Below are positions 3,326 to 18,197 of a stretch of DNA of 64,000 bases, piece after piece. The stretch covers positions 2,666,001 to 2,730,000 of the forward strand of contig NZ_JACRTF010000001.1 in assembly GCF_014385165.1 (NCBI RefSeq), read 5' to 3'. The notes under the pieces are model-generated. The model saw only the letters and a list, made by a program, of their open reading frames with translations, was not told where the DNA came from and searched no databases. Numbering within the stretch: the stretch's first letter is position 1; each line of letters opens with the position of its first letter. The translations under genes were made by a program, and so were the position numbers. The DNA comes from Jilunia laotingensis (GTDB taxonomy: Bacteria > Bacteroidota > Bacteroidia > Bacteroidales > Bacteroidaceae).

Positions 3326-4552
3326 TTAGATGGTTTTAGTAGAGAAACTCTCCCGTACATTCTGCATATCTCGGAGAATACTTTGATCTAATACTTTTGC
3401 GTATCGCTGCGTCATTTTTGTATTGGTATGACCGAGCATTTTGGCTACATTTTCCAATGATACATTGTTAGCTAAAGCGACAACGGTCGAAAATGTATGT
3501 CGTCCGGTATGCGTGGTTAGATTCTTCTTGATACCGCATAAATCAGCAATTTCTTTCAAGTAACTGTTTAGCTTTTGGTTGCATGGAACAGGTAACAATG
3601 TTCCTTTCTTTTTCGCCAGTAGATGTCCTTTGTATTTCTCCAATATGGCTAAAGGTATATCCAAAAGAGGGATGTTGCACATGACTTTCGTTTTCTGTCT
3701 TGCTTTTCTAATCCATAAATTCCCCTGATTATCAGACACAAGATGTTCTGCCTTTAATTCAGATACATCTATGAAAGCTAACCCCGTGAAGCATTGGAAT
3801 AGAAAAATATCACGCACTAAATCCAGTCGAGGAACATCAAATACTTTGTTTTGCATAGTTTCTAATTCTTCTTTGGTTAGAAACTCTTTGTGTACTTCTT
3901 GCTCATGGAAACGGATATTGATAAACGGATCTTTCTCCATCCAATCATTAGCCAATGCCATATTGGTGATTTTCTTAACTACTTTCATATAACGGATTAC
4001 CGTATTTTCTTGCAAGTCCTTTTGAACTTTCAGGAAATGAATATAATCCTGAATAATGGCATGACTTATTTCTTTCATGGGTATATCCTTTAGATGGTGC
4101 TTTTTCAAAGCCATCTCTTTGAAATACCGTAAACAAGTATCAAATCGGGAGATAGTTACTTTGGCATAATCCTTACCAATCAGTTCACGGCATTTGTCGT
4201 TATGTTCCTGAAAAACTTCAAAGAACATCAGGTGCTTTACATCCAGCCCAAGAAAACGTCTTTTAATCTCCATCGGATTGATAAGCTTATTATCATCTTC
4301 TAAAATTCGATGAATATCATATAAACGTAGTCTTACCGATTCAATATAGCGGTTTACTTCTACAGATTTGGCATCTTTACCTGTACACCGTTCTTTGGTT
4401 TGCGACCAAAGTTCGGGCTTAATGGTTCGTTTTAACTGTATTTCAGCTAATTGACCTTGAATTGTTATCCGCAACATGATAGGTGTCTCACCTGACTTTA
4501 CTGTTCTTGTTTTGCGGATGAAGAACAGTACGTTGAAAGTCTGTCGTTTCAT
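3326..4552 (-). CDS. Tyrosine recombinase (integrase of element A)
   Basis: The 408-aa product has the three-part Bacteroides integrase layout: an arm-binding domain (residues about 1-90, starting MKRQTFNVLFFIRKTR), a SAM-like core-binding domain (about 105-205) and a catalytic domain (about 220-390). The catalytic HxxR is seen in HTGRH, followed by GHTN and the nucleophile region TQRYAKV. The first catalytic arginine is missing: its box reads TGLAFIDVSEL, as in other CTnDOT-type integrases that lack it. The gene ends at a terminator and lies just left of the tRNA-Phe-like repeat at 4781, so it belongs to the element extending leftward. It would catalyse integration into, and with helper factors excision from, the tRNA-Phe site. 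Confidence 0.93.
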   Translation of the reverse strand: MKRQTFNVLFFIRKTRTVKSGETPIMLRITIQGQLAEIQLKRTIKPELWSQTKERCTGKDAKSVEVNRYIESVRLRLYDIHRILEDDNKLINPMEIKRRFLGLDVKHLMFFEVFQEHNDKCRELIGKDYAKVTISRFDTCLRYFKEMALKKHHLKDIPMKEISHAIIQDYIHFLKVQKDLQENTVIRYMKVVKKITNMALANDWMEKDPFINIRFHEQEVHKEFLTKEELETMQNKVFDVPRLDLVRDIFLFQCFTGLAFIDVSELKAEHLVSDNQGNLWIRKARQKTKVMCNIPLLDIPLAILEKYKGHLLAKKKGTLLPVPCNQKLNSYLKEIADLCGIKKNLTTHTGRHTFSTVVALANNVSLENVAKMLGHTNTKMTQRYAKVLDQSILRDMQNVRESFSTKTI

Positions 4553-4675: not shown

Positions 4676-4780
4676 ATTTAGCACAGCGGAAGTGCGTAAT
4701 TCTGCTCAAAATATGCGGATTAGGGGAAAAAGAAAATCCCTGAAATGTTTAATTTTCAGGGATTTACCAAATTTGAAGTT

Positions 4781-4842
4781 TTTTAAAAGTGGTGCCACCA
4801 GGAATCGAACCGGGGACACAAGGATTTTCAGTCCTTTGCTCT
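4781..4842. repeat. Left copy of 62-bp attachment repeat (3' part of tRNA-Phe)
   Basis: This 62-bp stretch is identical to 18116-18177. It holds the anticodon arm, variable loop, T arm and acceptor 3' strand of tRNA-Phe plus 9 bp beyond the gene end. It marks the left boundary of element B and the right boundary of element A. An integrase gene lies on the left side of each copy, which indicates tandem insertion at the same target. Confidence 0.9.
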
Positions 4843-4906
4843 CAAGACCTTTAAAAGCCTCGCCTACGGCTCGACTTTCAAAGGCAACCAACTGAGCTAT
4901 TGCACC
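4790..4906 (-). pseudogene. tRNA-Phe-like sequence with a hairpin inserted in the D-loop
   Basis: Read on the minus strand this is a full tRNA-Phe outline: a 5' part GGTGCAATAGCTCAGTTGGT, a 44-nt insertion (4843-4886), and then a 3' part identical to the real tRNA-Phe with anticodon GAA. The insertion contains a near-perfect hairpin of 37 nt: 17-nt arms pair except for one tandem G-A/A-G mismatch, with a GTA loop. The 5' strand also differs from the real gene by C to A at position 6, which leaves an A-G mismatch in the acceptor stem. I see no TAnnTTFG-type promoter just upstream; the true tRNA has a TAnnTTTG box. It is probably not a working tRNA. It may be an element-borne attachment structure or tRNA mimic. 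Confidence 0.7.
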
Positions 4907-5360
4907 TTAGCAGTTATCTTATGATTTCTTTATATTCTTCTATTTCTTCTTTGGTTTAACTCACGGTTTAACTTTCAAAGAAAACTAAGATAGATTCAAC
5001 ATTAAATTAATAATCTCTTTGCAGCATTTAATTGCACCACGAAGTTAGTAAATATCGTGCTGTTATGCAATGATTCTTTCTTATAGTTTTGCTTTTGACT
5101 ATCAGTTTTTTACCTATCTAATGATATGGTATATAATGGTATAGTGTAGCTTTCTCCCTACTAAAGAAGTATTCATATATTGCACTTCCATTGCATAATA
5201 TCGTATAGGTATAGAAATCAGTAGTAGGTATATAAAGCAATTTCTTCTTAAAAATCTACCTGCTTAAAAATCTACTCTTATTGTTTTGTGTTCTCTGCAT
5301 CTATAAATATGTTTGTGAAACACATAGTTTTGTAGTTAATAAGATGTTTGTTTAGAACTG
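4907..5360. other. A/T-rich end of element B without a gene
   Basis: About 450 bp right of the tRNA-like sequence contain no credible coding frame. They include short A/T-rich runs and repeated stretches such as ATGATATGGTATATAATGG. As the integrase-distal end of element B, this is where an arm-site region would be expected, but I can identify no specific site. Confidence 0.4.
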
Positions 5361-5402
5361 AAAAAAGCCAACTTATCCGTAATTGGATGGGCTGGCTTTT
5401 TG
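5361..5402 (-). terminator. Terminator of the envelope-gene run
   Basis: AAAAAGCCA (about 5362-5370) and TGGCTTTTT (about 5393-5401) form a stem flanked by A and T runs, directly downstream of the lipoprotein gene ending at 5411. It can work in either direction. Confidence 0.7.
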
Positions 5403-5410
5403 CGTATGTA

Positions 5411-6040
5411 CTATTTTATCAATTCAAATTTTTCGTCTTTTAATTGGTAGGTCTTATTGATAATATTGTTCCAACCATTAGAACCGTAAATAGTAATGGT
5501 CTTGTTCTCTGAATCAAACTTACATTGTCCGTTTTCCAACTCTGTAAATGGTGCTTCTGTTTTCAGCATAAAGTAACCGTATGGGCTGACATCGTACACA
5601 TCATAAGCATTGGAATCTCTTGAACCACTTTTATAGCGGTTGATAATGAACTCATCTTCTCCGTCAAAATCAACATCAGAAAAGAAGAAAGGAGAATTAT
5701 CCGAAAGGTATTCTTCGTTCTCTAATTTAGCCGTATAGTCTAACTCTATAACTGTGTTGTTCGGATATGTGTTGCCTTTATCATACAGAACCCTATCAGT
5801 CCATTTCTCCGCAAAGTAGTAATATTCCACTCCTTGTTTCTCTAAACAGAATAGAGCGTTACCTACTTCACCATTTTGCAGCCACATTACTTTTACTGTA
5901 TATCCGTTTATAGGCTGTTTGTACTTAATGTAGATATGCGGCTGATTGAAACATTCAAAATCCTGCGGAACAGATGTTTTGTCTGTTTTGCAAGCTATTA
6001 AGCAAAGTAACCCAATAATGATAAATAGTAATCTTCTCAT
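5411..6040 (-). CDS. Lipoprotein with an aspartate-rich DxDxDG-type loop
   Basis: The 209-aa product begins with a lipoprotein signal (MRRLLFIIIGLLCLIAC, lipobox Cys at 17), so it should be a lipidated envelope protein. Near residue 120, FFFSDVDFDGEDEFII matches the calcium-type loop of FG-GAP/XAC2610-like repeats seen in Bacteroidetes lipoproteins. No enzyme motif is visible. It overlaps the preceding dead-PBP gene by 1 nt (TAATG), so the two are translationally coupled and may act together. It is the last gene before a terminator. Confidence 0.75.
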   Translation of the reverse strand: MRRLLFIIIGLLCLIACKTDKTSVPQDFECFNQPHIYIKYKQPINGYTVKVMWLQNGEVGNALFCLEKQGVEYYYFAEKWTDRVLYDKGNTYPNNTVIELDYTAKLENEEYLSDNSPFFFSDVDFDGEDEFIINRYKSGSRDSNAYDVYDVSPYGYFMLKTEAPFTELENGQCKFDSENKTITIYGSNGWNNIINKTYQLKDEKFELIK

Positions 6041-6894
6041 TACCTTTCATTCATTATATCAATAATCTGCCTAAACACATCACCTGCCATCAGTCCACCA
6101 CTTGCAGGTAATCCCTTCTTATTAATGGTAACGATAACACTGTATTTCGGATTATCGGCAGGGAAGTAACCGCAAAATTCTACGGCATATTCACCGTTTG
6201 GAAGTTGAATAGTTCCCGTTGCTCCTGCTACTTTAACCTTATCGGATTGGGCAGGTTTAGCTAATCCATTAGAAACAGCGTATTCCAATGCTTGCTTAAT
6301 GGCTGTCTTGCTTGCTGCATTAAAGAAAGTCAAGTTCTGTAATGGAGTAGTGAGTATGCCGTATCCCAAAGGGTTATAGACAAGGCTTGTATCTTTCACT
6401 TGATAACCGTATTTTGCAAGTGTTTCCGCAAAGGTTTGTTCATTATCAAATGCCTTTCTTACCGCCTTGTAATTGGCGATATTGGATGCAAGTCCGAAAC
6501 CTTGCTCCACTGTGATTTTTCCATATCCACTCCTATGCCAATTATGGTCGCACAATGTATCTTTTCCAATAGCTAATATACCATTATCAACATCTATCGT
6601 ATCGGATAATTTGACAGCCTTTGTTTCCAATGCTGCCAAAAGTGAAGCGGTACGCACTAATCCCGATTCTTGCAGAATAGAATCAGAACCAACAAAAGCC
6701 TTGATTTCTCCCGTCCGTACTTCCATTACAATAGCTTGCCCTATTGTAGCATCAAGTTCGGATAGCTTGTTTTGCAGGATAGAATCAACACTTACTTGTA
6801 AAGTGCTGTCTATGGTAGAAACTTGTTCCGCTTTTTGTTTGGCGCAAGCTATGAATGTAGCTATGCTAATTAAAAGGATAATAGTATTTTTCAT
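6040..6894 (-). CDS. Lipoprotein with a degenerate penicillin-binding transpeptidase domain
   Basis: The 284-aa product has a lipobox (FIAC, Cys 17) and then only a PBP2/FtsI-like transpeptidase domain. Recognisable blocks include EVRTGEIKAFVG, SLLAALETKAVKLSDTIDV and CGYFPADNPKYSVIV. All three active-site motifs are altered: the SxxK position reads SGLV (78-81), SxN reads ASN (136-138) and KTG reads ATG (225-227). It therefore cannot be a normal transpeptidase or beta-lactamase. It could bind peptidoglycan or a partner as a pseudoenzyme. It is coupled to the lipoprotein at 5411 and follows small membrane and secreted genes in the same orientation. Confidence 0.8.
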   Translation of the reverse strand: MKNTIILLISIATFIACAKQKAEQVSTIDSTLQVSVDSILQNKLSELDATIGQAIVMEVRTGEIKAFVGSDSILQESGLVRTASLLAALETKAVKLSDTIDVDNGILAIGKDTLCDHNWHRSGYGKITVEQGFGLASNIANYKAVRKAFDNEQTFAETLAKYGYQVKDTSLVYNPLGYGILTTPLQNLTFFNAASKTAIKQALEYAVSNGLAKPAQSDKVKVAGATGTIQLPNGEYAVEFCGYFPADNPKYSVIVTINKKGLPASGGLMAGDVFRQIIDIMNER

Positions 6895-6917
6895 GGTAGT
6901 TTATGTAAATAGAAATG

Positions 6918-7319
6918 TTATTCATTGCTCTTATAAAAACAGTATGCCATTACCGTAACGTTTATAATATTGTATAAAATGGTTAGGATAACAGCGACAC
7001 TATCCCACATACTTTCCCAATGATTAGCCATAAATGCAAGAAACCCAGTGATAAATAGAATTGTACATGCTCCATCCATATCACGCCCATTTTTTATTCC
7101 AGCTCTTATTTCAGCTATAATTGCGGAAATAAAGGCAATCCCAGAGTATGTGTATATTCTATAATTACTAATTTCCACCAATGTACAAGATGATATATCA
7201 ACCCATGAACATACAATATTCCAAGCGATAAGCCCAACTATAAAATAAATGATAACCGCAATAATTAGGCATACAATAGATTTGAAAATATCCATAATCA
7301 TCAAGATGTTATTTGCCAT
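6918..7319 (-). CDS. Small polytopic membrane protein
   Basis: I start at the ATG at 7319 (MANNILMIMDIFK), since it overlaps the previous gene by 11 nt in a coupling arrangement. A TTA-side extension to 7337 would lie further inside that gene. The 133-aa product has about four hydrophobic segments (SIVCLIIAVIIYFIVGLIAW; YTYSGIAFISAIIA; CTILFITGFLAFMA; VAVILTILYNIINVTVMAY). No family is recognised. It sits in a run of envelope-directed genes, 23 nt upstream of the dead-PBP gene. Confidence 0.7.
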   Translation of the reverse strand: MANNILMIMDIFKSIVCLIIAVIIYFIVGLIAWNIVCSWVDISSCTLVEISNYRIYTYSGIAFISAIIAEIRAGIKNGRDMDGACTILFITGFLAFMANHWESMWDSVAVILTILYNIINVTVMAYCFYKSNE

Positions 7320-7659
7320 TAATCCGCTTATAAACAAGTATAACGGTTTGTCCTCTAAAAGTACCTCCTATGGTAATTCTGCTTAATACACCATTTACTT
7401 TATTAGAAACGATAACCACTCCACTTTCACCAAAACCTTTGTATTCGTAACCATCTTTAGATGTCAGAGTAACAGTTTCATTTTTATAAGTTACAGTGGC
7501 TTTAGATTCACTAATAAGATGGGCTGTAATATTTGAAGCACTTATAGTAGTTACTTTCTCGTTGTCAATAACTGCATAATCAAACTTGTATTCATCAGCA
7601 TATAGATTAATACTGAATACGATTAATGTAAATGCGAATATTAGGACTTTGAATTTCAT
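7309..7659 (-). CDS. Secreted small beta-rich protein
   Basis: The 116-aa product has a clear signal peptide (MKFKVLIFAFTLIVFSINLYA, cleavage likely after position 21). The mature region is rich in alternating polar and hydrophobic residues (KATVTYKNETVTLTSKDGYE; SGVVIVSNKVNGVLSRITIG), consistent with a small beta domain. I do not recognise a family. It overlaps the following membrane protein gene and is 13 nt from the preceding one, so it belongs to the same transcript. Confidence 0.7.
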   Translation of the reverse strand: MKFKVLIFAFTLIVFSINLYADEYKFDYAVIDNEKVTTISASNITAHLISESKATVTYKNETVTLTSKDGYEYKGFGESGVVIVSNKVNGVLSRITIGGTFRGQTVILVYKRINGK

Positions 7660-7672
7660 ACCATACTTCTAT

Positions 7673-7966
7673 TTAATGTGAACACATAGATACTAAAACC
7701 AATAATCCAACAACAGCAACAAGTATTGACATACACCCAGTTTTGTTCAGTTCCTTATCTTTGAATCCATTCTTCAAGCCATCTTTAATAAAGATATATG
7801 CAAAGAATCCTCCTGCGATAATACCCAAAAGTACCCATAAGGACATTCCAAAATTAGAAGTTCCACCGTTATCCCATCTACCACGATTACCAATGTCTGC
7901 AAATAGATAAGTAGTATTGAGGAATAGCATGATAAAAAGCAATATGCACTTATTTAACTTGTTCAT
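7673..7966 (-). CDS. Small membrane protein with signal sequence
   Basis: The 97-aa product has an N-terminal signal (KCILLFIMLFLNTTYLFA), a short Gly/Asn-rich exported stretch (DIGNRGRWDNGGTSN), and two further hydrophobic segments (SLWVLLGIIAGGFFAYIFI; MSILVAVVGLLVLVSM) separated by a Lys-rich loop. It is not a family I can name. Spacing of 12-13 nt to both neighbours places it in the envelope operon of element B. Confidence 0.7.
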   Translation of the reverse strand: MNKLNKCILLFIMLFLNTTYLFADIGNRGRWDNGGTSNFGMSLWVLLGIIAGGFFAYIFIKDGLKNGFKDKELNKTGCMSILVAVVGLLVLVSMCSH

Positions 7967-7978
7967 ACTTAATACTAT

Positions 7979-8503
7979 TTACATGTTGTGTGAATATCTT
8001 CTGTTTACTATTGCTTTGGCAATTTCATTGAAATATGTAGCAACCTCTTTATTGGCATAAAAAGCCCGATACTTCTTTTGTTTGCGTACACTTAAAGCCC
8101 TGTACTCCGCACCACTTATTCTATTTCCTTTATTATCGTACCAATAATCATCCCCATCAACATTGCCCAATTCTCCTTTAGAATCTGTTATGTTTCCAAA
8201 ATCATCAGCTGAAAGTCTGTCTTTTTTCAATGCGTCCATATACCTTTCATACGCATTTCTAAATTCCTCACGTTTATATTCATTCCAATTCTTACTTGCA
8301 ACATAGGATTGAACATTAGTTCCTAAATTGTGTATATATAATTCTTTGTCAATTTTGCGCATACCATATTTATATGAAAAATTGCCTTGAAATTCTTGGT
8401 TTACAGATAATCTGTTCATAAAAATATCACTGTCATTTCCCATATTTACACTATATATGGGAGCAAAGTATAAGGTAAGCAGTAGTAAAACAAAAGTTCT
8501 CAT
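7979..8503 (-). CDS. Exported hypothetical protein, charged and Tyr-rich
   Basis: The 174-aa product begins with a signal peptide (MRTFVLLLLTLYFAPIYS). The mature part is highly charged and Tyr/Asn-rich, with a central acidic-aromatic stretch (GNVDGDDYWYDNKGNRISGA) and helical flanks. There is no recognised domain. It lies 12 nt from each neighbour and is read in the same direction, so it probably functions with the other exported products of this operon. Confidence 0.65.
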   Translation of the reverse strand: MRTFVLLLLTLYFAPIYSVNMGNDSDIFMNRLSVNQEFQGNFSYKYGMRKIDKELYIHNLGTNVQSYVASKNWNEYKREEFRNAYERYMDALKKDRLSADDFGNITDSKGELGNVDGDDYWYDNKGNRISGAEYRALSVRKQKKYRAFYANKEVATYFNEIAKAIVNRRYSHNM

Positions 8504-8514
8504 AATTTCAACAA

Positions 8515-8985
8515 TTAGTAGTTAAAGTAAATAGTACCCAACGTTGTATGCTCTACTTTCCATTCAAAGTTATTCACTATAATTTCTTTGTCTAATAAAG
8601 CATTGACCCTAACGGCTCTGTTATTACAATCTCTCCAACTTTCTCTATATAAAGAACGGTCTAATACAGCCCGAACATAGATTTCAGTTTCTCCCGAATA
8701 AGATTCTCCTAAATTGATTTTGATTTTTGTTCTTTTGAAATTTTGTGAACTTGCATCAAAGAAGTATGCTCCTACAGTCTGATAGCTTTGTGTGGTAGAA
8801 CGGTTAGGAGTAGAATATGAAGGCACATTCGGAAAATACCCGTTACTATTGCCACGGTTATGTTCGTTGCTACTGTTGTTATTGCTTTTGCCAACTATTA
8901 CGGGTTTGTATTCAACTAATGGAAGTTGTGAATAAGCAATTGTTGGCAGTACTGTAAAAGCTAAAATTGAAATAATCTTTTTCAT
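8515..8985 (-). CDS. Exported hypothetical protein, first gene of envelope operon
   Basis: The 156-aa product has a signal peptide (MKKIISILAFTVLPTIAYS), then a low-complexity Asn/Ser/Pro linker (about residues 30-65) and a C-terminal domain of likely beta structure (TKIKINLGESYSGETEIYVR). No family is recognised. It is the promoter-proximal gene of seven same-strand genes running to 5411. It is preceded by a 300-nt leader with alternative hairpins (9039-9118) and a candidate -7 box at 9294-9301. Confidence 0.65.
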   Translation of the reverse strand: MKKIISILAFTVLPTIAYSQLPLVEYKPVIVGKSNNNSSNEHNRGNSNGYFPNVPSYSTPNRSTTQSYQTVGAYFFDASSQNFKRTKIKINLGESYSGETEIYVRAVLDRSLYRESWRDCNNRAVRVNALLDKEIIVNNFEWKVEHTTLGTIYFNY

Positions 8986-9038
8986 TGCTCACTAATATTG
9001 TACTTCCTAATTCCCTGAAGAAGCGGATAAAAAATAAG

Positions 9039-9118
9039 GTGTGGGAACTTATCATCCTTATCCATTGGTGGGCTTCTCGCATTGCCTCGTAGCGGATAAA
9101 GACAATAGCCCACACCAA
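9039..9118 (-). promoter_or_regulatory. Leader region with mutually exclusive hairpins
   Basis: On the minus strand the segment TTGGTGTGGGCT (9118-9107) can pair either with AGCCCACCAA (9074-9065) or with CCCACACC (9046-9039). The sequence TTATCCGCT also occurs twice (9099-9091 and 9030-9022). Competing pairings in a 5' leader suggest a conformational switch, but a structural or operator role is equally possible. The 9000-9678 gap holds no gene. Confidence 0.4.
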
Positions 9119-9293
9119 AGGATATGTAGAAAGCCAATAATGGCTATACATACCAAAGATGTGGTGCTACCGTCCATTATCTTTGCTACAGGAAAATTTT
9201 GCGAGAATTTACCAATAAAGATAATTTCAATAACACCTTTCGTTAAATATGTCCTTTCAGTGCCTTAACACATTAAGACCTCTGAAATTGTTG

Positions 9294-9301
9294 CAAAGTT
9301 A
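9294..9301 (-). promoter_or_regulatory. Candidate -7 box for the envelope operon
   Basis: TAACTTTG on the minus strand matches the Bacteroides -7 consensus TAnnTTTG. A clear -33 TTTG at the right distance is not visible. Transcription from here would give a leader of about 300 nt before the gene at 8985. Confidence 0.4.
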
Positions 9302-9678
9302 GCGAAAGGTTTTGAATAGCTAAAGATAAAACGCTGATAAATGCAGTTCTAAGTGTTCCAAAACATATCTGTAGTAGGTAATTAGGTAATCATACCAACT
9401 ATTAGTTTCCAAAAATCGCACATGCCATAAACTACAAGCCATATTATGCCTTTTTAAAAAGATAATTTTCTTACGCTTGCATCAATGCGGAACTAACCAC
9501 GTTATCGCTATCTGTTTCGCTTGAAACTATGCCCTATCATATTTATATATAGCTATTATTTACAGTTCTTCTTACATTGCAGTTTTTGAAAGTTGCTGTA
9601 TGTTAGGGCACGGGACAAAGTTCTCTTTCTCTGAAAATTGCATGATAACAACAGAAATTTCAGACTTTGTCCCACCAA

Positions 9679-10272
9679 TCAGAAACTCAAACAATCATAA
9701 GTGTTTAACAGTTCTTCTTGTCTAAGTCCTAAGTATCTTTTAGTAATGGTTACACTTGAATGGTTAAACAGTTCCATCAGTTTAACCAAAGCCAATTCAG
9801 CATTTTCAGAGGATTCAAACACTTTCCTGCCAAAAGTCTTTCTAAGTGAATGAGTGGAAAAATGGTCTATCTTTAAATTGTACTTGTTTTTCAACTCTTT
9901 AAGTACAATGTTTATCCATTGGATAGAATAGACTTTGTTCTTACCTTTTCCCGATAAAAAGCAAAACTCATTCAAGTTTTGAATATTCAAGGCAGTATAA
10001 CAGTCTTTAATGTGCTTCTGAAACTCCTTATTAATTCTCACTTCCCTACGTTTGCTTGTTTTCTTTTCAGTGATGGTAAACTTTGCATCCTTATTCAGAA
10101 GCATTTCCCAAGTAAGTTGCAACAGGTCAGAAATGCGGAGACCAAAGAATATGCCACACCCAACAAGCAGGCTTATTCTATAATTCTTATCCCTATATAA
10201 CTTTCTTACCAAGTTTGTGGCACTGTCCCATTGCAGGCAGTCACTTGTTGTATAGCTGTTCTTCAAACTCAT
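9679..10272 (-). CDS. Minimal tyrosine recombinase (catalytic domain only)
   Basis: The 197-aa product is about half the size of a normal integrase and contains only the catalytic domain. It shows the box I arginine (GLRISDLLQL, near residue 45), the HSLRK box (about 143), NHSS in place of the usual GHSS/GHTS, and the tyrosine in TKRYLGL. So R-H-R-N/H-Y is largely kept, unlike in the two element integrases, which lack box I Arg. The absence of an N-terminal DNA-binding domain resembles short Bacteroides invertase-like recombinases. Its substrate may be a DNA segment within the element or a resolution site. It is followed by a 600-bp gene-free stretch. Confidence 0.85.
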   Translation of the reverse strand: MSLKNSYTTSDCLQWDSATNLVRKLYRDKNYRISLLVGCGIFFGLRISDLLQLTWEMLLNKDAKFTITEKKTSKRREVRINKEFQKHIKDCYTALNIQNLNEFCFLSGKGKNKVYSIQWINIVLKELKNKYNLKIDHFSTHSLRKTFGRKVFESSENAELALVKLMELFNHSSVTITKRYLGLRQEELLNTYDCLSF

Positions 10273-10378
10273 GTTGTTTCAATTTTGTAGGTTTAACAAT
10301 AAAAGTGAAAGTAAATTCGGGAATCGCTTTGTAATAGTCTGATTCTCAAATCACTTTCACTTCTATTAGAAAGTGTAA

Positions 10379-10504
10379 CTATGATTGTATATAAATAAAG
10401 ATAGATAAAATCAGTATCAGCAAAAAGGGATTGATAATACCAATTATTATTAGTAACAGTACTACTAGTATGCTCCATAGTACTAGTTTTTCATTATCAT
10501 TCAT
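10379..10504 (-). CDS. 41-aa hydrophobic peptide
   Basis: A short frame from ATG 10504 to TAG 10379 encodes MNDNEKLVLWSILVVLLLII and continues through IGIINPFLLILILSIFIYIQ to a final Ser. A polar N-terminus is followed by two hydrophobic stretches separated by an Asn-Pro break, as in small holins, phage-type membrane peptides or type I toxins. It lies between DUF3871 and the minimal recombinase on the same strand. An inverted repeat (AGTGAAAGT near 10304 and ACTTTCACT near 10355) follows it and could end the transcript. The composition supports a real peptide; the function is unknown. Confidence 0.5.
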   Translation of the reverse strand: MNDNEKLVLWSILVVLLLIIIGIINPFLLILILSIFIYIQS

Positions 10505-10568
10505 TTTGTAGTATTTTTAAGTGAATAAAAAAAGGACACCTAAATAAATAGATGCCCTATTAGTTAGT

Positions 10569-11582
10569 TTAGCCCAAGAACCAAGAATATTTATTATCCA
10601 GTCCTTGTAATACATTGTTTAATCCAACACTTACCTCTGTAGCATTTACCCCACGTTGTAAATAGCTGTCTATGTAGCTATTTTTGTTTGATTGTGTGAG
10701 TAAATTATGAAAATCAAAAAGAGATATAGCATTATCTTTCACTCCAAACACTTCATTTGTGTAATAATCACGACACACACTATTTATTTGGCTGTCAGTG
10801 ATTAAAAGTCTTGGTATTGCTTTCTGTCTTGCTGGTGAAAGTGCTTGATACATTCTCATTCTGCCTACCACTTGTGCAAACTGTGTTTCAGATAGATAAG
10901 TGTCTGATAATGTTTGCATCAAATGTATTTCTTTGGCTGCATTGAAGCTGTTAAACAATTCCAGTACATTTCTGTAAAGTTCACTGATATTGGTTACTTC
11001 CATGTTGAACCTCACACCCTCACCAGTAAGAATCTGATTAGAACAAATTTTCATTCTCCAACCTATAAAACAAGAAAATTTCTCCAAGCCTTTGGAAGAA
11101 CGGTACAGATTCAAGTCACTGTAATTTCTTACCCCACCTATGCACAATTCAAGTTTTTGTCCTCTTATTGTTTCAAAAATAGTTGGAACAGTAAAAGCAA
11201 ATGCAAGTCTTTGATAGAATTGTGTCTTCTCACATTCTAACAGTTCACTTGCTTTCTTGCCTAGTGCGGACGGTATTCTACCACGTACTATATGTGAAAC
11301 TCTTATTTCTGGAAAACTCACCTTTTCACCTGCATAGAATGTACTTGCAGCTTCATGCACACAAGAAATAAAGTCTTGGTGTGCAATGGTTAATTCTTGG
11401 TTTGCCCAAGTTGGAACGACACATTTGTTTGCAAGCTCATCCAGTGTGATAGAATCTGTATTTGCTTCCAAGAAAGTAATGCTTGGCTTTGCAGTTTCTT
11501 CCACAATTATAGTAGCTTCTTCTGCATACTCACCTAAATTCAAAGTTCTTTTCTCTGTTGGCATGATAACTAAATTTCTCAT
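10569..11582 (-). CDS. DUF3871-family protein
   Basis: The 337-aa product matches the DUF3871 pattern known from Bacteroides mobile elements: a short N-terminal segment (MRNLVIMPTEKRTLNLGEYA), a central domain with FPEIRVSHIVRGRIPSA and CIGGVRNYSDLNLY, then FSCFIGWRMKICSNQ. The organisation resembles DUF932-type phage and plasmid proteins of unknown function. No signal or membrane segment is present, so it should be cytoplasmic. It stands alone on the minus strand between two gaps within element B. Family from memory; biochemical role unknown. Confidence 0.75.
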   Translation of the reverse strand: MRNLVIMPTEKRTLNLGEYAEEATIIVEETAKPSITFLEANTDSITLDELANKCVVPTWANQELTIAHQDFISCVHEAASTFYAGEKVSFPEIRVSHIVRGRIPSALGKKASELLECEKTQFYQRLAFAFTVPTIFETIRGQKLELCIGGVRNYSDLNLYRSSKGLEKFSCFIGWRMKICSNQILTGEGVRFNMEVTNISELYRNVLELFNSFNAAKEIHLMQTLSDTYLSETQFAQVVGRMRMYQALSPARQKAIPRLLITDSQINSVCRDYYTNEVFGVKDNAISLFDFHNLLTQSNKNSYIDSYLQRGVNATEVSVGLNNVLQGLDNKYSWFLG

Positions 11583-11953
11583 ATTGATAAAAGTTTAAAT
11601 GATTAATAATTCTTTTTTATATCAATATACAGAGGGGGACTATTGGAGGTTGTGGACACGCGCTACAGCCACTCTTATATATTTTAGGTCACTGGCTGCA
11701 TGGGGAGGGGGATTTCTGTATTAAGTACCTTATATATCTGTTCTCTTGACTTTTAGCTAAACTGCATATAGGTGATTCTTTAATTAGGTAGTCTTTTTAA
11801 TGTCATTGGCTGTATGTGGCATATTATAAAGTATAGGCTATATAACTCTCATTAAAGTGAAAATTTTCAGAAAGTCAGAATCGGAAAAATGTACGTCTGT
11901 GGTTCTGCGCCAAAAATAAAAGCCGCAAGGGTTACTTACGGCTTGGCAATATA
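11583..11953. other. Gene-free stretch with imperfect direct repeat
   Basis: The 370-bp gap contains GTCACTGGCTGCATGGGG (about 11688) and a partner GTCATTGGCTGTATGTGG (about 11800), which match at 15 of 18 positions. G-runs and A/T-rich parts flank them. A short stem (GCCGC...GCGGC-type, near 11923-11944) lies just after the helix-turn-helix gene. These could be replication or regulatory sites of the island; nothing is conclusive. Confidence 0.35.
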
Positions 11954-12571
11954 TTAGGCAATGTAACCTCTTTCAAGGTCTTCATCGGTGATTATTTCGG
12001 GATATAGGTTCTTGATAATAGCCAACTGACTTTCAGAAGTTATCAGAAATATATCCTCTCTAAGCAGGTGTATTCCTTTCTTGTCCCTCTTTACATAGCC
12101 ATTTTCTATGGCTTCATTCATATATCTTGATATTGTACCTTTAGACAAGCCAAGTTCTTCCGCTAATTTGTTTTGGCTGTAAAGAGTGGTGTTAGTCCCG
12201 TTCAAGCATTTACATTTCAGCAGGACAAGAAAGCCTTTCAGTTCCTTGCTTATCGGTTCATTATATAGCTTATTAGTTATAAGAACGTAATGTTCCGTAT
12301 CTGATTGGTAGCTGCATCTGTTGAATTTTCCATATTGTCCGTAAACATCAAATTTATCTATGTTTACTAATCCGAGGGATTCAAACTTATGTAGCCATTC
12401 TCTTATCTGGTCTGTCTTTTTAATTCCGTAGAAATCAGTCAAGTTATCTTGTTTGATATATGATTCCATCGTATTGCAATCGGAACAGAGAGCCAGGCAA
12501 TAGAATAGGTACGTTTCCAGCAAATTAAGTTTTCCTGCGATATTAGATGTTATTTTTCTGTATGAGGTCAT
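11954..12571 (-). CDS. Winged helix-turn-helix protein of element B
   Basis: I start at the ATG at 12571 (MTSYRKITSN) rather than an upstream TTG. The 205-aa product has two helical parts. The C-terminal half holds a helix-turn-helix with wing: LYSQNKLAEELGLSKGTISR, then YMNEAIENGYVKRDKKG. The N-terminal half (LYFCL-type helices, TDFYGIKKTDQIREWLHK) may be a second DNA-binding or oligomerisation module. The layout resembles replication-initiation or MarR-like regulators of phages and plasmids, but I cannot assign a family. It overlaps the preceding 54-aa gene by 29 nt. Confidence 0.7.
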   Translation of the reverse strand: MTSYRKITSNIAGKLNLLETYLFYCLALCSDCNTMESYIKQDNLTDFYGIKKTDQIREWLHKFESLGLVNIDKFDVYGQYGKFNRCSYQSDTEHYVLITNKLYNEPISKELKGFLVLLKCKCLNGTNTTLYSQNKLAEELGLSKGTISRYMNEAIENGYVKRDKKGIHLLREDIFLITSESQLAIIKNLYPEIITDEDLERGYIA

Positions 12572-12707
12572 TAGCAACCGTATGTTTATAGTTAGTAAAA
12601 TAAATATCTCCTTTCTTTACCAGTCTTCTGTAATGGTGGTTTCCGAAGTAGCTTTTCGCTTCTTTCTGATTCGTGAATGTCTGTTTTGTAGGCAAATAGA
12701 TAATCAT
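12543..12707 (-). CDS. 54-aa basic small protein
   Basis: This frame, too short for usual gene calling, runs from ATG 12707 to TAA 12543. It encodes a basic, aromatic-rich product beginning MIIYLPTKQTFTNQKEAKSY and containing NHHYRRLVKKGDIYF. The composition and the 29-nt overlap with the winged-helix gene support a real co-transcribed gene. It resembles small phage-type DNA-binding or homing-associated peptides only in general character. Confidence 0.5.
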   Translation of the reverse strand: MIIYLPTKQTFTNQKEAKSYFGNHHYRRLVKKGDIYFTNYKHTVANDLIQKNNI

Positions 12708-12805
12708 AGGCAATTAAATATGAGATTTTGAGAATTAACCAATCTGTCCCGATTTGAAAAATCGGGTAGGTAGGTATTTATATATAGGTATTTATAAGCG
12801 ACCCA

Positions 12806-12842
12806 CCTAAGATGAACACTCCGCACCCCCTAAAATGAACAC
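12806..12842. repeat. Two 14-bp direct repeats, 23 bp apart
   Basis: CCTAAGATGAACAC (12806-12819) and CCTAAAATGAACAC (12829-12842) differ at one base and are spaced about two helical turns apart. This could be an operator. The minus-strand reading (GTGTTCATTTTAGG twice) also resembles the repeated ends of IS21-family elements, so an insertion-sequence end remnant is possible. Confidence 0.45.
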
Positions 12843-12998
12843 CTCTTTTTTGAGAATCAGAACCGGATTTTGAGGATGCTGTTTTTGTGAGGTTGGATTT
12901 CTGTTTTTTCAGATATGCTATCTTATTCATTGTATTAAAAAGTTCCAAGTAGAATCGGTGCAATCATTAGTTATAGAGAAAACCAACCATTTTTAGTG

Positions 12999-13035
12999 AT
13001 TATAGGAAAGACACGGTTTGCATCTGTCCTATAAT
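12999..13035. repeat. Inverted repeat in gap downstream of the helicase
   Basis: ATTATAGGA (12999-13007) and TCCTATAAT (13027-13035) are perfect inverted 9-mers with a 19-nt loop. Another stem (GGTATATATAGG near 13096 with CCTATATACC near 13132) overlaps the helicase stop. They may be transcription end or operator structures. The 12708-13132 gap shows no gene I accept. Confidence 0.4.
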
Positions 13036-13132
13036 CTTGTATAAACGTAAGATGACTTTCTGTATATGCAGGTGCAGGTACTTTTTTTAAGCAGGGTATA
13101 TATAGGAATTTCTTCATAAAAAAGGTACTCGC

Positions 13133-14941
13133 CTATATACCTTTCCGCATGGTCAGTTGATAACCTTTTATATTTTTCCGCTTGCTTTCCACCGCATGAA
13201 AAAAATCAAGAATGGTATGTGATGTTACCGCTTTCTTTGGGACAATGCCAAACAACTTAAAAATCCTGCTGATTTCTTCCTTTATGAATTTTCGGGAATA
13301 CCATTTGCCCGTTTCAAAAGAGTTGTATATCATCTGTGAGACTTCCGTTCCCGTAACTTTGGCATGGTAGTCTGCAATAATCATTGCTTCCTTTATTTTC
13401 TTGCGGTTATATTTCAACCGTTCAATTTCTTTCTTGCCTATCTTGTTGTATGCTTCCACTATAAAACTGTCCGCTTGTTCCAAGTCCCTTTTGAATTGGT
13501 ATTCCATTTCCGTTTGGCATTCACCAAGCAATTCAAGCTGTTGTACCATTATCTTACGTTTCTCCTTGATGGAATTTGACTTGTTGCTACGTTGCAGTCT
13601 CTCATAGTCACCGAGTTTATAATCCAAAATGCTATAATTATTTATGGTAAAAGCATCGCAGTTCTTGTATGCTTTATGCAGATTATCGGGACAATTATAA
13701 TATCCTTTCACCAGTTCCGTATTGATGTAGTTGTCTATCTTGAAGTATTTGCTTCTTCCTTTCTCGTCCAGCATCTCCGCATAGGGCAGACTGGTAAGTA
13801 TTGTACCGTATGCGTCTTTTGCGGAAACGGTGGTCGCATAGTCATAATGATTCTGTAACATATCGTACACGTCTTTCCAACACGAAATACGTCCTTTAAG
13901 TTCTTCCTTGCTTCTCACCATAAAATTGCGGTTGGTGTTGCTGATATGGTGGATAGAGGACACACCGTTTCTGAATCTTCCCACACATTGAATCGTGTCC
14001 GTATTCGGGTCAAATGCGGTATAGTCCGCAAAATAACAGTCTGTCAGTAATAAGATGGTCGGCTTCTCTTCAAGTTCAATATCCACCGCATTATAAAAAC
14101 GTGAAGTGAGCCAGTTGTAACGCTTCATTATGCCCTTGTCCCATATATCGGAAACATTCTCAAACTTCAAGCCTTTCAGCTTTTCCACACTCTTTTCGGA
14201 ACAGAATACTGCGGATTCGTCCAATAAGTCAAGTTGCTGCATCAGTGAATAAATGGTATCTGTAGAATTACAGAATACGAAACAATTACCTTTCAGATCT
14301 GCAAACACTTCTTTTGCTGCCTGCAACAGATTATTGGTAGCATGGAGATTCATGCCTTTTACATAGTCGAATGTAGGCTTGATGGTAATGGTCTGAAATT
14401 TCTGTTCTTCAAAACGTGGGTCTGTAAACTCGATGGGAGTGGCAGATACCAAGGCTTTCTGTTCACATTCAAAAAATAAGTCCATAGGCAATGTTATATC
14501 GGGACGAAAACCTGAATCTTTGACTATCTTATGGCATTCATCGAACAATAGAAAGCTGTTATAGCGTATATCCATATCCATTTCTTCAAATGCTTCCTGC
14601 ACCTTGTGGAAACTTTCGGGAGTAGTGAGTATCTTGAAATGTTTACTCTGTTTGATGCTCCTTTCCATGTATGCCACTACGTCATCCGTATAGACACCAT
14701 CAAAAACACCAAAAAGATTGTCTTTCTCATGTTTCGGGTCTTTGCATTTTCCGCTGATAACGGGTTTGTTCGGCTCTATGATGATTGAATTACGGTGTGC
14801 TTTCAGTTCTCCATAAGTAGCACCAAGTCCCGTAAGTTTCTTATATAATATGGTGTTGGTGGGGATTTCGGGCAGTATCTCTGTCAAGTATTGGATTTTT
14901 CCGTTTGCTTCCTTGCTGACTGTTATCTCTCTGTTCTTCAT
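13133..14941 (-). CDS. SF2 (DEAD/DECH-type) helicase-like protein
   Basis: I start at ATG 14941 because upstream in-frame residues lie across the intergenic gap and the next gene. The 602-aa product has an ATP-binding loop TGLGAT (residues 37-42), a DECH box (LLFDECHKI, 134-137), motif III SATP (166-169) and a motif VI-like QCVGRFRNG (about 320). The first loop lacks the usual GKT/GKS lysine, so ATP use may be altered. The C-terminal 250 residues are helical and unassigned. It is the largest protein of element B and a candidate for its replication or for defence. It is preceded by a 160-aa gene in the same transcript. Confidence 0.75.
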   Translation of the reverse strand: MKNREITVSKEANGKIQYLTEILPEIPTNTILYKKLTGLGATYGELKAHRNSIIIEPNKPVISGKCKDPKHEKDNLFGVFDGVYTDDVVAYMERSIKQSKHFKILTTPESFHKVQEAFEEMDMDIRYNSFLLFDECHKIVKDSGFRPDITLPMDLFFECEQKALVSATPIEFTDPRFEEQKFQTITIKPTFDYVKGMNLHATNNLLQAAKEVFADLKGNCFVFCNSTDTIYSLMQQLDLLDESAVFCSEKSVEKLKGLKFENVSDIWDKGIMKRYNWLTSRFYNAVDIELEEKPTILLLTDCYFADYTAFDPNTDTIQCVGRFRNGVSSIHHISNTNRNFMVRSKEELKGRISCWKDVYDMLQNHYDYATTVSAKDAYGTILTSLPYAEMLDEKGRSKYFKIDNYINTELVKGYYNCPDNLHKAYKNCDAFTINNYSILDYKLGDYERLQRSNKSNSIKEKRKIMVQQLELLGECQTEMEYQFKRDLEQADSFIVEAYNKIGKKEIERLKYNRKKIKEAMIIADYHAKVTGTEVSQMIYNSFETGKWYSRKFIKEEISRIFKLFGIVPKKAVTSHTILDFFHAVESKRKNIKGYQLTMRKGI

Positions 14942-15002
14942 TTTTCTTATACTTAAATAGTTAATAAAAAAGGGGGAAACTTCCCCCTTTACTTTTGGTT
15001 GT

Positions 15003-15485
15003 TTAGATAATCTGTTTATGCTCACGTAAATAGTCCAATGTCTCATCTGTCCGCTTGATTCTGAACATTATCTTTCCCTTGAAGCAAGGAAGAATCGCAC
15101 TGATAGATTCGGGATGCTCTCTAAACAACGGAACATATTGTATTGCCTTACCAGCGTCAATCATTGCTTTCAGTATTCCAAGCTGGAAGTCCTCGTTCTC
15201 ATCCAACGTGTCCGCTTCTTTCGGGTTTGTATCGAAGTCTGTCACGTCACCTTTGAATAAGTAGTTCAACAAGCCTTGATAGGATGCGCTTTTCAGTTGG
15301 TATTTGAATCCTGCCACGTGAGCGGATTCTATCCATGCACAACGTGTATTGTCTTTGCTACCGTAGAACTTCACTATCAGTTGTTCCTTACGCTTCATCA
15401 TTTCCTGCAAGGTGTTGTATGCGCCTTGGTTATCATACTCTTTTATAGCGGTTTTTGTACCGAAATTGTAATCAAAATTACTCAT
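15003..15485 (-). CDS. Hypothetical protein, co-transcribed with the helicase
   Basis: The 160-aa product is acidic, without signal or membrane segments, and I recognise no family. It contains EEMMK/R-type helices near the N-terminus, KDNTRCAWIESAHVAGFKYQ in the middle and a C-terminal FKGKIMFRIKRTDETLDYLR segment that could be a small beta-alpha domain. It is the first gene behind a perfect Bacteroides promoter (15562-15592), 61 nt upstream of the helicase, and is likely its functional partner. Confidence 0.65.
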   Translation of the reverse strand: MSNFDYNFGTKTAIKEYDNQGAYNTLQEMMKRKEQLIVKFYGSKDNTRCAWIESAHVAGFKYQLKSASYQGLLNYLFKGDVTDFDTNPKEADTLDENEDFQLGILKAMIDAGKAIQYVPLFREHPESISAILPCFKGKIMFRIKRTDETLDYLREHKQII

Positions 15486-15561
15486 GGTTATAATTTTTTA
15501 ATTAATGAATATGTTAATGCAATCATTGACTTTGGCGCCTTATTGTCTCTGATTGACATTG

Positions 15562-15592
15562 CAAAAGTAGGGCAGAATTTAGGGGTAACAAA
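15562..15592 (-). promoter_or_regulatory. Promoter of the 160-aa gene and helicase
   Basis: On the minus strand -33 TTTG (15589-15592), a 19-nt spacer and -7 TACTTTTG (15562-15569) match the Bacteroides vegetative promoter exactly. The gene starts about 75 nt downstream of the -7 box. Confidence 0.8.
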
Positions 15593-15642
15593 GGAATTTG
15601 CCGAATGCCCATGTGTGTAGAAAACGTGCCCATTCCAGTACG

Positions 15643-15686
15643 CAAAAAAAATGCGTACCGAAAAGAATAAGCCTTTCAGTACGCAT
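15643..15686 (-). terminator. Terminator after the 333-aa gene
   Basis: On the minus strand ATGCGTAC and GTACGCAT form the base of a longer stem around 15651-15686, followed by eight T residues. A second, shorter stem uses the same GCGTAC. Confidence 0.8.
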
Positions 15687-15712
15687 TTCTGCTATGGTTT
15701 TATGTATGTTGT

Positions 15713-16714
15713 TTATGAGACTACCATGTAGTTATTAGCTATGACAGACGGAAATTTCTCGTTCTTGTATCTTCTAAGGAGATTGGATAACATTCTGTTC
15801 TTGTTGCCCTCTGAATCGTATTCTTCATTGTATCTCTTGCCATCATAGCCCACTGTATAGATAAGTCTTGAAACAAGCATCATCTTGTCTTTAGATACCT
15901 TTACCTTTTTGTTGGGTATGGTAGTAGCCTTTCTTCTCTCAATGAAGAAAAGAAACATATCCGTAAACTTCCATTTCTTATAGGATATGTCAAGACTGAA
16001 CTTGTCTTTGAAGTTCATTTGTGATAACAGACTGTTATCTATAAAGCCTTTCAATCCTATATTTTCTAATTGTTTGATTTTTAGCTCTATGCCTTGTTCT
16101 CCCTTTACAATATTGTCGTATGTTTCACTGAAATGATGGACTGCTATTTGAATGATATTTATCAAATCTTCTCTTTCTGTATAATAACTCTTTCTATTGC
16201 CTTGCTTCAAAGTAATACTTGACGCATCACACAGATTAGTTAGAAAAGTGGCAAAGTCTTCAAGTACGGACTTTCCCATAATGGGTGCATTTGTACCAAT
16301 ATCCTCTATAAAATCATATACGAAAAGAAGTAGATACCAAAACTTACTAACGTCCAACTTATACGCTTCAATGGTATTCTGTAAATCTTCATTAGTTAGA
16401 AACTTCTCTTTGAATGAATCATCCAGCTTTCTGTATTCTCGTTTCTTGTATTCTTCCAAAGTTCCTTTGAAAGTTCTCATTTCTTGTGTTCTCTCGTATC
16501 TTTCTTCAACGGATAAGTTTCTTTCTGCATATCTGTTGGCGAATATGGCAGGTGCGGAAGATTCTACGGGTATCATTCCCATATCTGTTTCTGCATAATC
16601 GGGCAGGAAGTGATTGGCTACTTCCCACACATATTCTAATAGTGGTTCAGCAAGGCATTTATAGCTTTCATGCCAAGCCACTTTTAAATCGGGCAATTCT
16701 TCTATCTGATACAT
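15713..16714 (-). CDS. Hypothetical 333-aa protein of element B
   Basis: The cytoplasmic 333-aa product has no domain I recognise. It is strongly helical in the first two thirds (EERYERTQEMRTFKGTLEEY; KREYRKLDDSFKEKFL) with aromatic-rich parts (KFWYLLLFVYDFIEDIG). The C-terminal region is basic (KKVKVSKDKMMLV; NRMLSNLLRRYKNEKF), which would suit nucleic-acid binding. It lies between the integrase and the helicase module, with its own terminator, on the minus strand. The position is typical of a regulator or replication gene of an integrative island. Confidence 0.65.
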   Translation of the reverse strand: MYQIEELPDLKVAWHESYKCLAEPLLEYVWEVANHFLPDYAETDMGMIPVESSAPAIFANRYAERNLSVEERYERTQEMRTFKGTLEEYKKREYRKLDDSFKEKFLTNEDLQNTIEAYKLDVSKFWYLLLFVYDFIEDIGTNAPIMGKSVLEDFATFLTNLCDASSITLKQGNRKSYYTEREDLINIIQIAVHHFSETYDNIVKGEQGIELKIKQLENIGLKGFIDNSLLSQMNFKDKFSLDISYKKWKFTDMFLFFIERRKATTIPNKKVKVSKDKMMLVSRLIYTVGYDGKRYNEEYDSEGNKNRMLSNLLRRYKNEKFPSVIANNYMVVS

Positions 16715-17990: not shown

Positions 17991-18115
17991 ATTGATTTCC
18001 GGTTTAACTCTTGGTTTAACTCTGATAGCGAAAAGTGGCTAAATCCGTGGAAAAACAGGGTAGTATATAAAGAAAAAAGCAGCTACTTTTATTAGTAACT
18101 GCTTGATAATTAATC

Positions 18116-18177
18116 TTTTAAAAGTGGTGCCACCAGGAATCGAACCGGGGACACAAGGATTTTCAGTCCTTTGCTCT
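18116..18177. repeat. Right copy of 62-bp attachment repeat (within tRNA-Phe)
   Basis: Identical over 62 bp to 4781-4842. It covers the 3' part of the intact tRNA-Phe plus 9 bp beyond it, and is the integrase-proximal end of element B. After insertion the element supplies the tRNA's 3' end. Confidence 0.9.
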
Positions 18178-18197
18178 ACCAACTGAGCTATGGCACC
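18125..18197 (-). tRNA. tRNA-Phe (GAA)
   Basis: The 73-nt sequence folds as a standard tRNA. The acceptor strands GGTGCCA/TGGCACC pair fully, the anticodon loop is CTGAAAA (GAA), the T-loop is TTCGATT, and CCA is not encoded. It is the attachment site of element B, and its 3' part is duplicated at 4781-4842. A TAnnTTTG box lies 18 nt upstream. Confidence 0.96.

What the first reader, a model, noticed from the sequence alone, without database searches (positions are those of the whole stretch)
4781..4906. tRNA-Phe mimic with a hairpin in its D-loop at the junction of two integrated elements
The minus-strand sequence copies the whole of tRNA-Phe, but a 44-nt insertion holding a near-perfect 37-nt hairpin (17-nt arms, one tandem G-A/A-G mismatch, GTA loop) replaces part of the D-loop, and the acceptor stem has an A-G mismatch. 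In a usual tRNA-site insertion only the 3' half is duplicated; here the element end also supplies a 5' half. It could be an element-encoded attachment site shaped as a tRNA, a decoy or a regulatory RNA. A decayed tRNA with a chance insertion would not be expected to keep the hairpin paired.
Basis: partly seen in the sequence, partly recalled or inferred. Interest (0 to 1): 0.7.

Follow-up and report, generated by a model that had tools for sequence, protein, structure and literature searches.

The report
Hairpin-bearing tRNA copy in attachment sites
Mobile elements of gut bacteria that insert into tRNA genes carry, at one end, a copy of the front of the target tRNA with a hairpin built into it; the hairpin's shape is kept while its letters change, so it very probably does something, but what it does is not known.

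Summary
On the minus strand at 4906-4790 lies a tRNA-Phe copy with a 44-nt hairpin insertion in its D-loop. It is not a decayed tRNA but the far end of a ~13-kb element inserted in the real tRNA-Phe (18124-18197), beside the element's tyrosine integrase (16791-17990). The same plan recurs in Bacteroidales elements at tRNA-Phe, Lys (TTT, CTT), Gly (CCC, TCC), Met and Thr: 22 far ends, 16 distinct hairpins, grouped by me into 11 families. Arms differ in sequence but mostly stay paired; 15 of 16 loops read G(N)NA, against 31 of 433 other hairpins. Wobbles are G-T more than A-C (10 vs 1), so the tRNA-sense strand folds. Seven far ends at Leu, Ser and Pro show no such hairpin. It occurs with integrases only 24% identical. 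So the hairpin looks like a selected part of the attachment site. Function is inferred: a folded strand in recombination, or a tRNA-like att-site RNA (far-end promoter consensus exact in 12 of 22 hairpin ends, but also in 4 of 7 others). The window's own promoter box is mutated, and acceptor pairing is often weakened.

The parts
18124..18197 (-). Real tRNA-Phe (GAA), the insertion target; by inference its 5' part is host DNA and its 3' part is supplied by the element (attL)
   Evidence: ARAGORN; Rfam tRNA 68.4 bits
16791..17990 (-). Tyrosine integrase (399 aa) of the element that carries the tRNA copy; arm-binding, SAM-like and catalytic domains
   Evidence: Pfam; 28 of 29 relatives found lie just downstream of a tRNA gene
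18001..18020 (-). Two GTTAAACC repeats 12 nt apart, probable arm-type integrase sites on the integrase side
   Evidence: sequence; role inferred
4953..4972 (-). Two GTTAAACC repeats 12 nt apart, probable arm-type integrase sites on the far (P') side
   Evidence: sequence; two or more such repeats in 19 of 22 hairpin far ends, one in 1, none by my pattern in 2; role inferred
5040..5047 (-). Mutated -7 box (TAACTTCG) of the far-end promoter; several relatives have the exact TTG-spacer-TAnnTTTG
4887..4906 (-). Copy of tRNA-Phe nt 1-20 (acceptor 5' strand and 5' part of D-arm), 19 of 20 identical
4843..4886 (-). 44-nt insertion in the D-loop
4847..4885 (-). The hairpin: arms 4885-4868 and 4864-4847, loop GTA 4867-4865, tandem G-A/A-G mismatch
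4790..4842 (-). tRNA-Phe nt 21-73 (D-stem 3' strand, anticodon arm, T-arm, acceptor 3' strand); the crossover is inferred to lie here, 3' of the hairpin
   Evidence: identical far end joined to two different tRNA-Gly 3' halves in genome G265
4731..4765 (-). Terminator-like hairpin after the copy, on the side of the second element
   Evidence: sequence
3326..4552 (-). Integrase (408 aa) of the second, neighbouring element; other integrase family
   Evidence: Pfam; 23% identical to 16791-17990
4907..5407 (-). Conserved far-end region without an ORF of 60 aa or more
   Evidence: 91% identical to L002 and 83% to L003 over the aligned parts; ORF list
5411..16714 (-). Element body: DUF3871, HTH_36/replication-initiator-like, second tyrosine recombinase fragment, transpeptidase-domain protein, 637-aa protein, unknown proteins

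Best explanation
Shown by sequence: a family of Bacteroidales integrative elements that insert into tRNA genes carries, at the end away from the integrase, a copy of the 5' part of the target tRNA with a hairpin set into the D-loop, between arm-type repeats and the inferred crossover. In the excised circle this would be the P' side of attP; in the chromosome it is attR. Structure more than sequence is conserved, and it is the tRNA-sense strand that folds. Inferred: the hairpin acts as a folded single strand inside the attachment site. When the sense strand is single or displaced (strand exchange, branch migration, replication, transfer), the hairpin folds out and brings the D-arm copy next to the anticodon arm, so that attP then reads like attB; as plain duplex the same site is split and differs from attB. 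This would tell attP/attR from attB and steer the integrase. That it acts in recombination at all is inference.
For: Recurrence: 22 far ends, 16 distinct hairpins, in the D-loop, directly after GGT in 21 of 22 (L216 differs). Between my 11 families, loop-anchored comparisons pooled over 55 family pairs: both sides changed with pairing kept 286, one side 46, unchanged 180, at least one side unpaired 98; mean arm identity 0.37, highest 0.71 (comparisons not independent). Loops G(N)NA in 15 of 16, control 31 of 433; recalled, from no call: C-GNA-G and C-GNNA-G are unusually stable DNA loops. Sense strand: G-T 10, A-C 1, one hairpin per family. Place between arm repeats and crossover in the far ends read. 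Found with integrases only 24% identical although the two elements share a 637-aa protein at 98%, so it goes with att/int modules. D-arm copy 11-13 of 13 conserved while the acceptor copy ranges 2-7 of 7.
Against: No recombination data exist here. G-T wobbles, 19 of 195 standard pairs, fit RNA at least as well as DNA, and the folding margin over shuffles is smaller with DNA energies (0-15 of 300 for 15 hairpins, 188 of 300 for L266). No relaxase was recognised in the element proteins scanned, so no obvious source of single-stranded DNA. Relatives of the same integrase family at Leu, Ser and Pro manage without the hairpin (7 of 7 ends read). One loop (L064) is TAC. L266 is partly decayed (62 of 300 shuffles fold as well with RNA energies). 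The families are my grouping and share some inner motifs (Gly and Met types; window, L265 and L267 types), so they are not all independent origins.
Confidence: 0.42

Rival explanations
1. It is an att-site RNA: a far-end promoter transcribes through attR/attP, giving a short RNA made of leader, tRNA-like part with an extra D-arm hairpin, and terminator; the RNA is what is selected (regulating integrase expression, tRNA processing or a host target).
For: Sense-strand folding with many G-T pairs; RNA energies sense -21.9 against antisense -9.9 for the window hairpin. TTG-N17-21-TAnnTTTG in 12 of 22 hairpin ends (near-identical relatives counted singly), close to the Bacteroides consensus of TAnnTTTG at -7 and TTTG near -33 (PMC7366714, passages read). 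The copy starts at or near tRNA nt 1 in most ends. Several Gly and Met copies score as tRNA in Rfam with the hairpin as an insertion, up to 50.5 bits. Possible precedent: the one locus over the cut-off of Rfam sRNA BTnc005 in 109 genomes (L305) and the next best (L306) read as an element end fused to a tRNA-Ser 3' end (read by eye); the window aligns weakly to that model (20.6 bits, E 0.025, cut-off 174.8).
Against: Promoter not exact in 10 of 22, the window included, and present in 4 of 7 ends without hairpin. Acceptor pairing weaker than the host's in 9 of 13; D-stem broken in several Gly and Met types (reading). G-N-A triloops are not typical RNA loops (recalled). BTnc005 similarity is far below cut-off, that RNA has no D-loop hairpin, and most of its weaker matches that I read are ordinary tRNA-Ser genes.
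Confidence: 0.33
2. The hairpin only kills the redundant tRNA copy that the element must carry, so that attR does not make an extra or chimeric tRNA.
For: The insertion always sits in the D-loop; ARAGORN does not call the copies in the window and the loci scanned. In G265 the same end is joined to tRNA-Gly 3' halves of two kinds, a case where a chimeric tRNA would arise.
Against: Any insertion would kill a tRNA; no need for paired arms, G(N)NA loops or compensatory changes. Leu and Ser elements keep a whole tRNA copy without hairpin.
Confidence: 0.12
3. Random remnant: a decayed tRNA with a chance or repeat-element insertion.
For: The copy is imperfect; one relative (L266) is decaying; L075/L219 has another hairpin with a T run and no 3' half before the contig end.
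Against: Recurrence in 22 far ends at seven tRNA types with pairing mostly kept. Not a dispersed repeat: one copy in each of 4 genomes, and within 3 mismatches only in 1 of 399.
Confidence: 0.03

Closest known systems
tRNA-gene attachment sites of tyrosine integrases (genomic islands; Islander, PMC4383910, only the abstract start in a search listing seen)
   Same: Integrase next to a tRNA gene restored by the element; displaced tRNA part marks the other end
   Different: The displaced end also carries a 5' part of the tRNA, interrupted by a D-loop hairpin whose structure is conserved
tRNA gene fragments at mobile-element ends (PMC9897764, passages read)
   Same: Partial tRNA copy made by integration
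   Different: The passages read describe partial duplications; none mentions a hairpin insertion
tRNA-dependent lysogeny of actinobacteriophages (PMC10865867, abstract read)
   Same: Element at a tRNA gene carries tRNA sequence of the same isotype
   Different: There a working tRNA complements a broken one; here the host tRNA is intact and the copy is not called a tRNA
Integron attC and filamentous-phage folded single-strand recombination sites (recalled, no call)
   Same: A structured strand with little sequence conservation in a tyrosine-recombinase site
   Different: Crossover here is inferred to lie outside the hairpin; single-strand recombination not shown
Bacteroides sRNA BTnc005 (Rfam RF04178)
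   Same: The two best matches read as element ends fused to a tRNA-Ser 3' end and a terminator
   Different: tRNA-Ser, no D-loop hairpin; window match far below cut-off

Membership tests
tRNA-gene attachment site of a tyrosine-integrase element | Integrase gene adjacent to an intact tRNA gene | tested here: met
   18124-18197 and 16791-17990; 28 of 29 relatives likewise
tRNA-gene attachment site of a tyrosine-integrase element | Direct repeat of the tRNA 3' part at the other element end | tested here: met
   53 nt identical at 4842-4790
tRNA-gene attachment site of a tyrosine-integrase element | Excision to a circle with attP | not testable with these tools
   no circular form seen; NZ_OY725919 is listed as circular but carries chromosomal genes
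tRNA-gene attachment site of a tyrosine-integrase element | Only the 3' part of the tRNA is duplicated (the usual form, not a strict requirement) | tested here: not met
   5' part also present with hairpin; only 3' part in four Pro relatives
Functional tRNA | Recognised by a tRNA finder | tested here: not met
   window: ARAGORN no call; Rfam tRNA 23.4 bits, cut-off 29. Relatives differ: Gly and Met copies and part of the Thr copy reach 37-50.5 bits
Folded single-strand recombination site (attC-like) | Structure conserved with little sequence conservation | tested here: met
Folded single-strand recombination site (attC-like) | Recombination takes place within the folded strand | not testable with these tools
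   crossover inferred 3' of the hairpin, which speaks against a close parallel
Dispersed palindromic repeat (REP/MITE-like) | Many copies per genome | tested here: not met
   one copy in each of 4 genomes; 1 of 399 genomes
Bacteroides sRNA BTnc005 (RF04178) | Covariance score at or above 174.8 bits | tested here: not met
   20.6 bits

The most novel reading that the evidence does not exclude
tRNA-integrating elements of Bacteroidales use a folded strand as part of attP: a D-loop hairpin, selected for shape across at least two integrase families, switches the site between an attB-like and a split state and so sets the direction or timing of recombination.
Probability: 0.27. Interest if true: 0.86.

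Novelty: new variant of a known kind. Interest (0 to 1): 0.68.

Why it matters
tRNA attachment sites are usually described as duplications of a tRNA 3' end. Here a group of gut-bacterial elements keeps a second, structured part whose shape is kept while its letters change, and which goes with att/int modules exchanged between otherwise near-identical elements. It offers a sequence handle on how such integrases tell their own end from a free target, or on RNAs made from attachment sites. Both can be tested with mini-element assays in laboratory Bacteroides strains.

Tried and rejected
Own genome: not held. Phage and plasmid collections: matches were few or short apart from NZ_OY725919; I opened H2, H3, H4 and H7 and left the others, H1, H5, H6, H24 and H25 among them, unopened. 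Circular attP in NZ_OY725919: rejected, chromosomal genes on the record. Functional-tRNA mimic by a co-evolved acceptor stem: not supported, the copy never pairs better than the host strand (L063 left out because my parser took the wrong stretch; element and host 3' strands were identical in the other 13, so attP and attR could not be told apart). Cruciform in duplex DNA: disfavoured, because G-T and G-A mismatches of one strand are worse on the other. Known RNA family at cut-off: none on the copy. ViennaRNA's DNA triloop table was empty in my printout, so the loop-stability argument rests on recall. The loop control takes hairpins with nine or more unbroken pairs, on an arbitrary strand, and still includes some of the copies. 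Promoter counts have no shuffled control.

Rows dropped: L074, L078, L083, L087, L093 (no copy); L269/L275 (G575: hairpin-bearing tRNA-like stretch next to an ordinary tRNA-Met at a contig end, other context); L219/L075 (5' part, different hairpin, 3' part missing); L233 (same end as L064) not counted in the 22. In one search two of 17 loci (L307, L321) printed the wrong stretch and were not judged.

Literature: eight searches listed no paper whose title or abstract start describes a D-loop hairpin in a tRNA attachment site; most subscription journals are not held.

Full report
What is there. On the minus strand at 4906-4790 is a copy of tRNA-Phe: nt 1-20 with one difference, then a 44-nt insertion (4886-4843), then nt 21-73 without difference. 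The real tRNA-Phe lies at 18197-18124. The insertion is a hairpin with loop GTA, a tandem G-A/A-G mismatch and three G-T pairs. The whole copy folds better than all of 200 shuffles (z -2.86).

The element. Next to the real tRNA is a tyrosine integrase with arm-binding domain (16791-17990); between it and the copy lie about 12 kb with DUF3871, a replication-initiator-like HTH protein, a second recombinase fragment, a transpeptidase-domain protein and unknown proteins. No relaxase was recognised among the proteins scanned. The copy is followed by a second integrase of another family (3326-4552), so two elements lie in tandem. Complete elements with the same plan are L015 and L019 at tRNA-Lys, with integrases 55-57% identical. 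So the copy is the far end of the element that carries it.

Survey by integrase (not chosen by hairpin). Relatives of the integrase occur in 25 of 301 genomes of the family sample at E <= 1e-80. Of 29 places, 28 have a tRNA just upstream: Phe 6, Leu 5, Lys 1, Pro 13, Gly 2, Ser 1. Far ends could be read for 10 of the 29; the other 19 ran into contig ends, were not found, or were not fetched (L045). Among the 10: Phe and Gly 3 of 3 with hairpin, Leu, Ser and Pro 0 of 7. The Leu and Ser ends repeat the whole tRNA; four Pro ends have only the 3' part; one Pro end has a 5'-like part without hairpin.

Survey by sequence (biased towards hairpins). The hairpin 26-mer was found in 4 genome contigs, one place per genome. 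Further ends came from far-end searches. An order-wide search for tRNAs with an insertion matched in 41 of 324 genomes, most of them ordinary tRNAs or chance; reading the matches by eye I took D-loop hairpins in 7 genomes, G001 among them, known before, and set one more (G575) aside. Of the seven copies fetched for this (L264-L268, L270, L271), five have the matching tRNA upstream in the same stretch (L264, L265, L266, L268, L270), four of these with an integrase match (not L266). A phylum-wide sample matched in 23 of 198 genomes, and by eye only G001 had true copies. So the feature looks limited to Bacteroidales, as far as this pattern reaches.

Structure against sequence. 22 far ends give 16 distinct hairpins: 176 Watson-Crick, 19 G-T, 3 A-C, 20 G-A and 4 other positions. 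With RNA energies 15 of 16 fold better than all 300 shuffles; L266 does not (62 of 300 as good). With DNA energies 0-15 of 300 shuffles are as good for those 15, and 188 of 300 for L266. Grouped by me into 11 families, mean arm identity is 0.37 (0.10-0.71); pooled over 55 family pairs, 286 comparisons keep a pair with both letters changed, 46 with one changed, 180 unchanged, and 98 have an unpaired position on at least one side. These comparisons are not independent, and some families share inner motifs. Loops are G(N)NA in 15 of 16 (the other is TAC); among 433 other hairpins with 3-4 nt loops in the fetched DNA it is 31, some of the copies included. G-T 10 against A-C 1, one hairpin per family, P = 0.006 if both were equally likely. 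The tRNA-sense strand is therefore the one that folds.

Much of nt 8-20 is common to these tRNAs in general. Acceptor pairing of the copy is worse than the host's in 9 of 13 elements, equal in 4, better in none. In Lys-CTT (L268) the acceptor part looks like that of Phe or Thr copies, as if inherited from an earlier target. A working tRNA is unlikely for most, but several Gly and Met copies still reach Rfam's tRNA score.

Where it sits. Two or more arm-type repeats lie upstream in 19 of 22 hairpin ends by my pattern, one in L217, none in L268 and L267, and two lie before the window's integrase. In genome G265 one far end, identical over 261 bases, is joined to two different tRNA-Gly 3' parts, so the crossover is inferred 3' of the hairpin. 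The Met element L215 shares a 637-aa protein at 98% with the window's element while its integrase is 24% identical: att/int modules are exchanged, and both carry a hairpin. On an integrase tree of 20 rows the hairpin needs 4 changes (shuffled mean 6.0, 21 of 500 as low) and occurs in both main parts; several forks are weakly supported and the Met row is very long.

RNA or DNA. For RNA: sense-strand folding with wobbles, promoter consensus in 12 of 22 hairpin ends (published consensus from PMC7366714), tRNA-like scores of some copies, and BTnc005, an sRNA family whose one match over cut-off in 109 genomes (L305) and next best (L306) read as element ends fused to a tRNA-Ser 3' end. Against: promoter not exact in 10 of 22, window included, and present in 4 of 7 hairpin-free ends; weakened acceptor stems. 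For DNA: position inside the attachment site, presence with different integrases, G(N)NA loops (their DNA stability is recalled). I lean slightly to a role of the folded strand in the attachment site, with the RNA reading close behind.

Verdict. It very probably is a selected, structured part of the attachment site of a group of tRNA-integrating elements; its mechanism is open.

Noticed in passing
L215 (G409:C25) and window 13133-15046: Element body 98% identical in a 637-aa protein while integrase and target tRNA differ: exchange of att/int modules
   Followed up: partly
L064, L233 (genome G265): The same element end joined to two tRNA-Gly genes (TCC and CCC); the attL tRNA seems to combine a 5' half of one with a 3' half and anticodon of the other, so integration may change a tRNA's anticodon; an assembly artefact is possible
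   Followed up: partly
L075/L219 (G383:C74): Phe 5' part followed by a different hairpin with a run of eight T (terminator-like) and no 3' part before the contig end
   Followed up: no
window 9679-10272: Second tyrosine recombinase fragment (197 aa), 58-63% identical in some relatives and 96-99% in others
   Followed up: no
L305, L306; Rfam RF04178: The two best matches to the annotated Bacteroides sRNA BTnc005 read as element ends fused to a tRNA-Ser 3' end: an attR that is listed as an sRNA
   Followed up: partly
window 4907-5407: About 500 nt of conserved DNA without an ORF of 60 aa upstream of the copy
   Followed up: no
far ends L054, L065: Leu and Ser elements of the same integrase family carry a whole tRNA copy at attR, so the host may gain a second tRNA gene
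   Followed up: no
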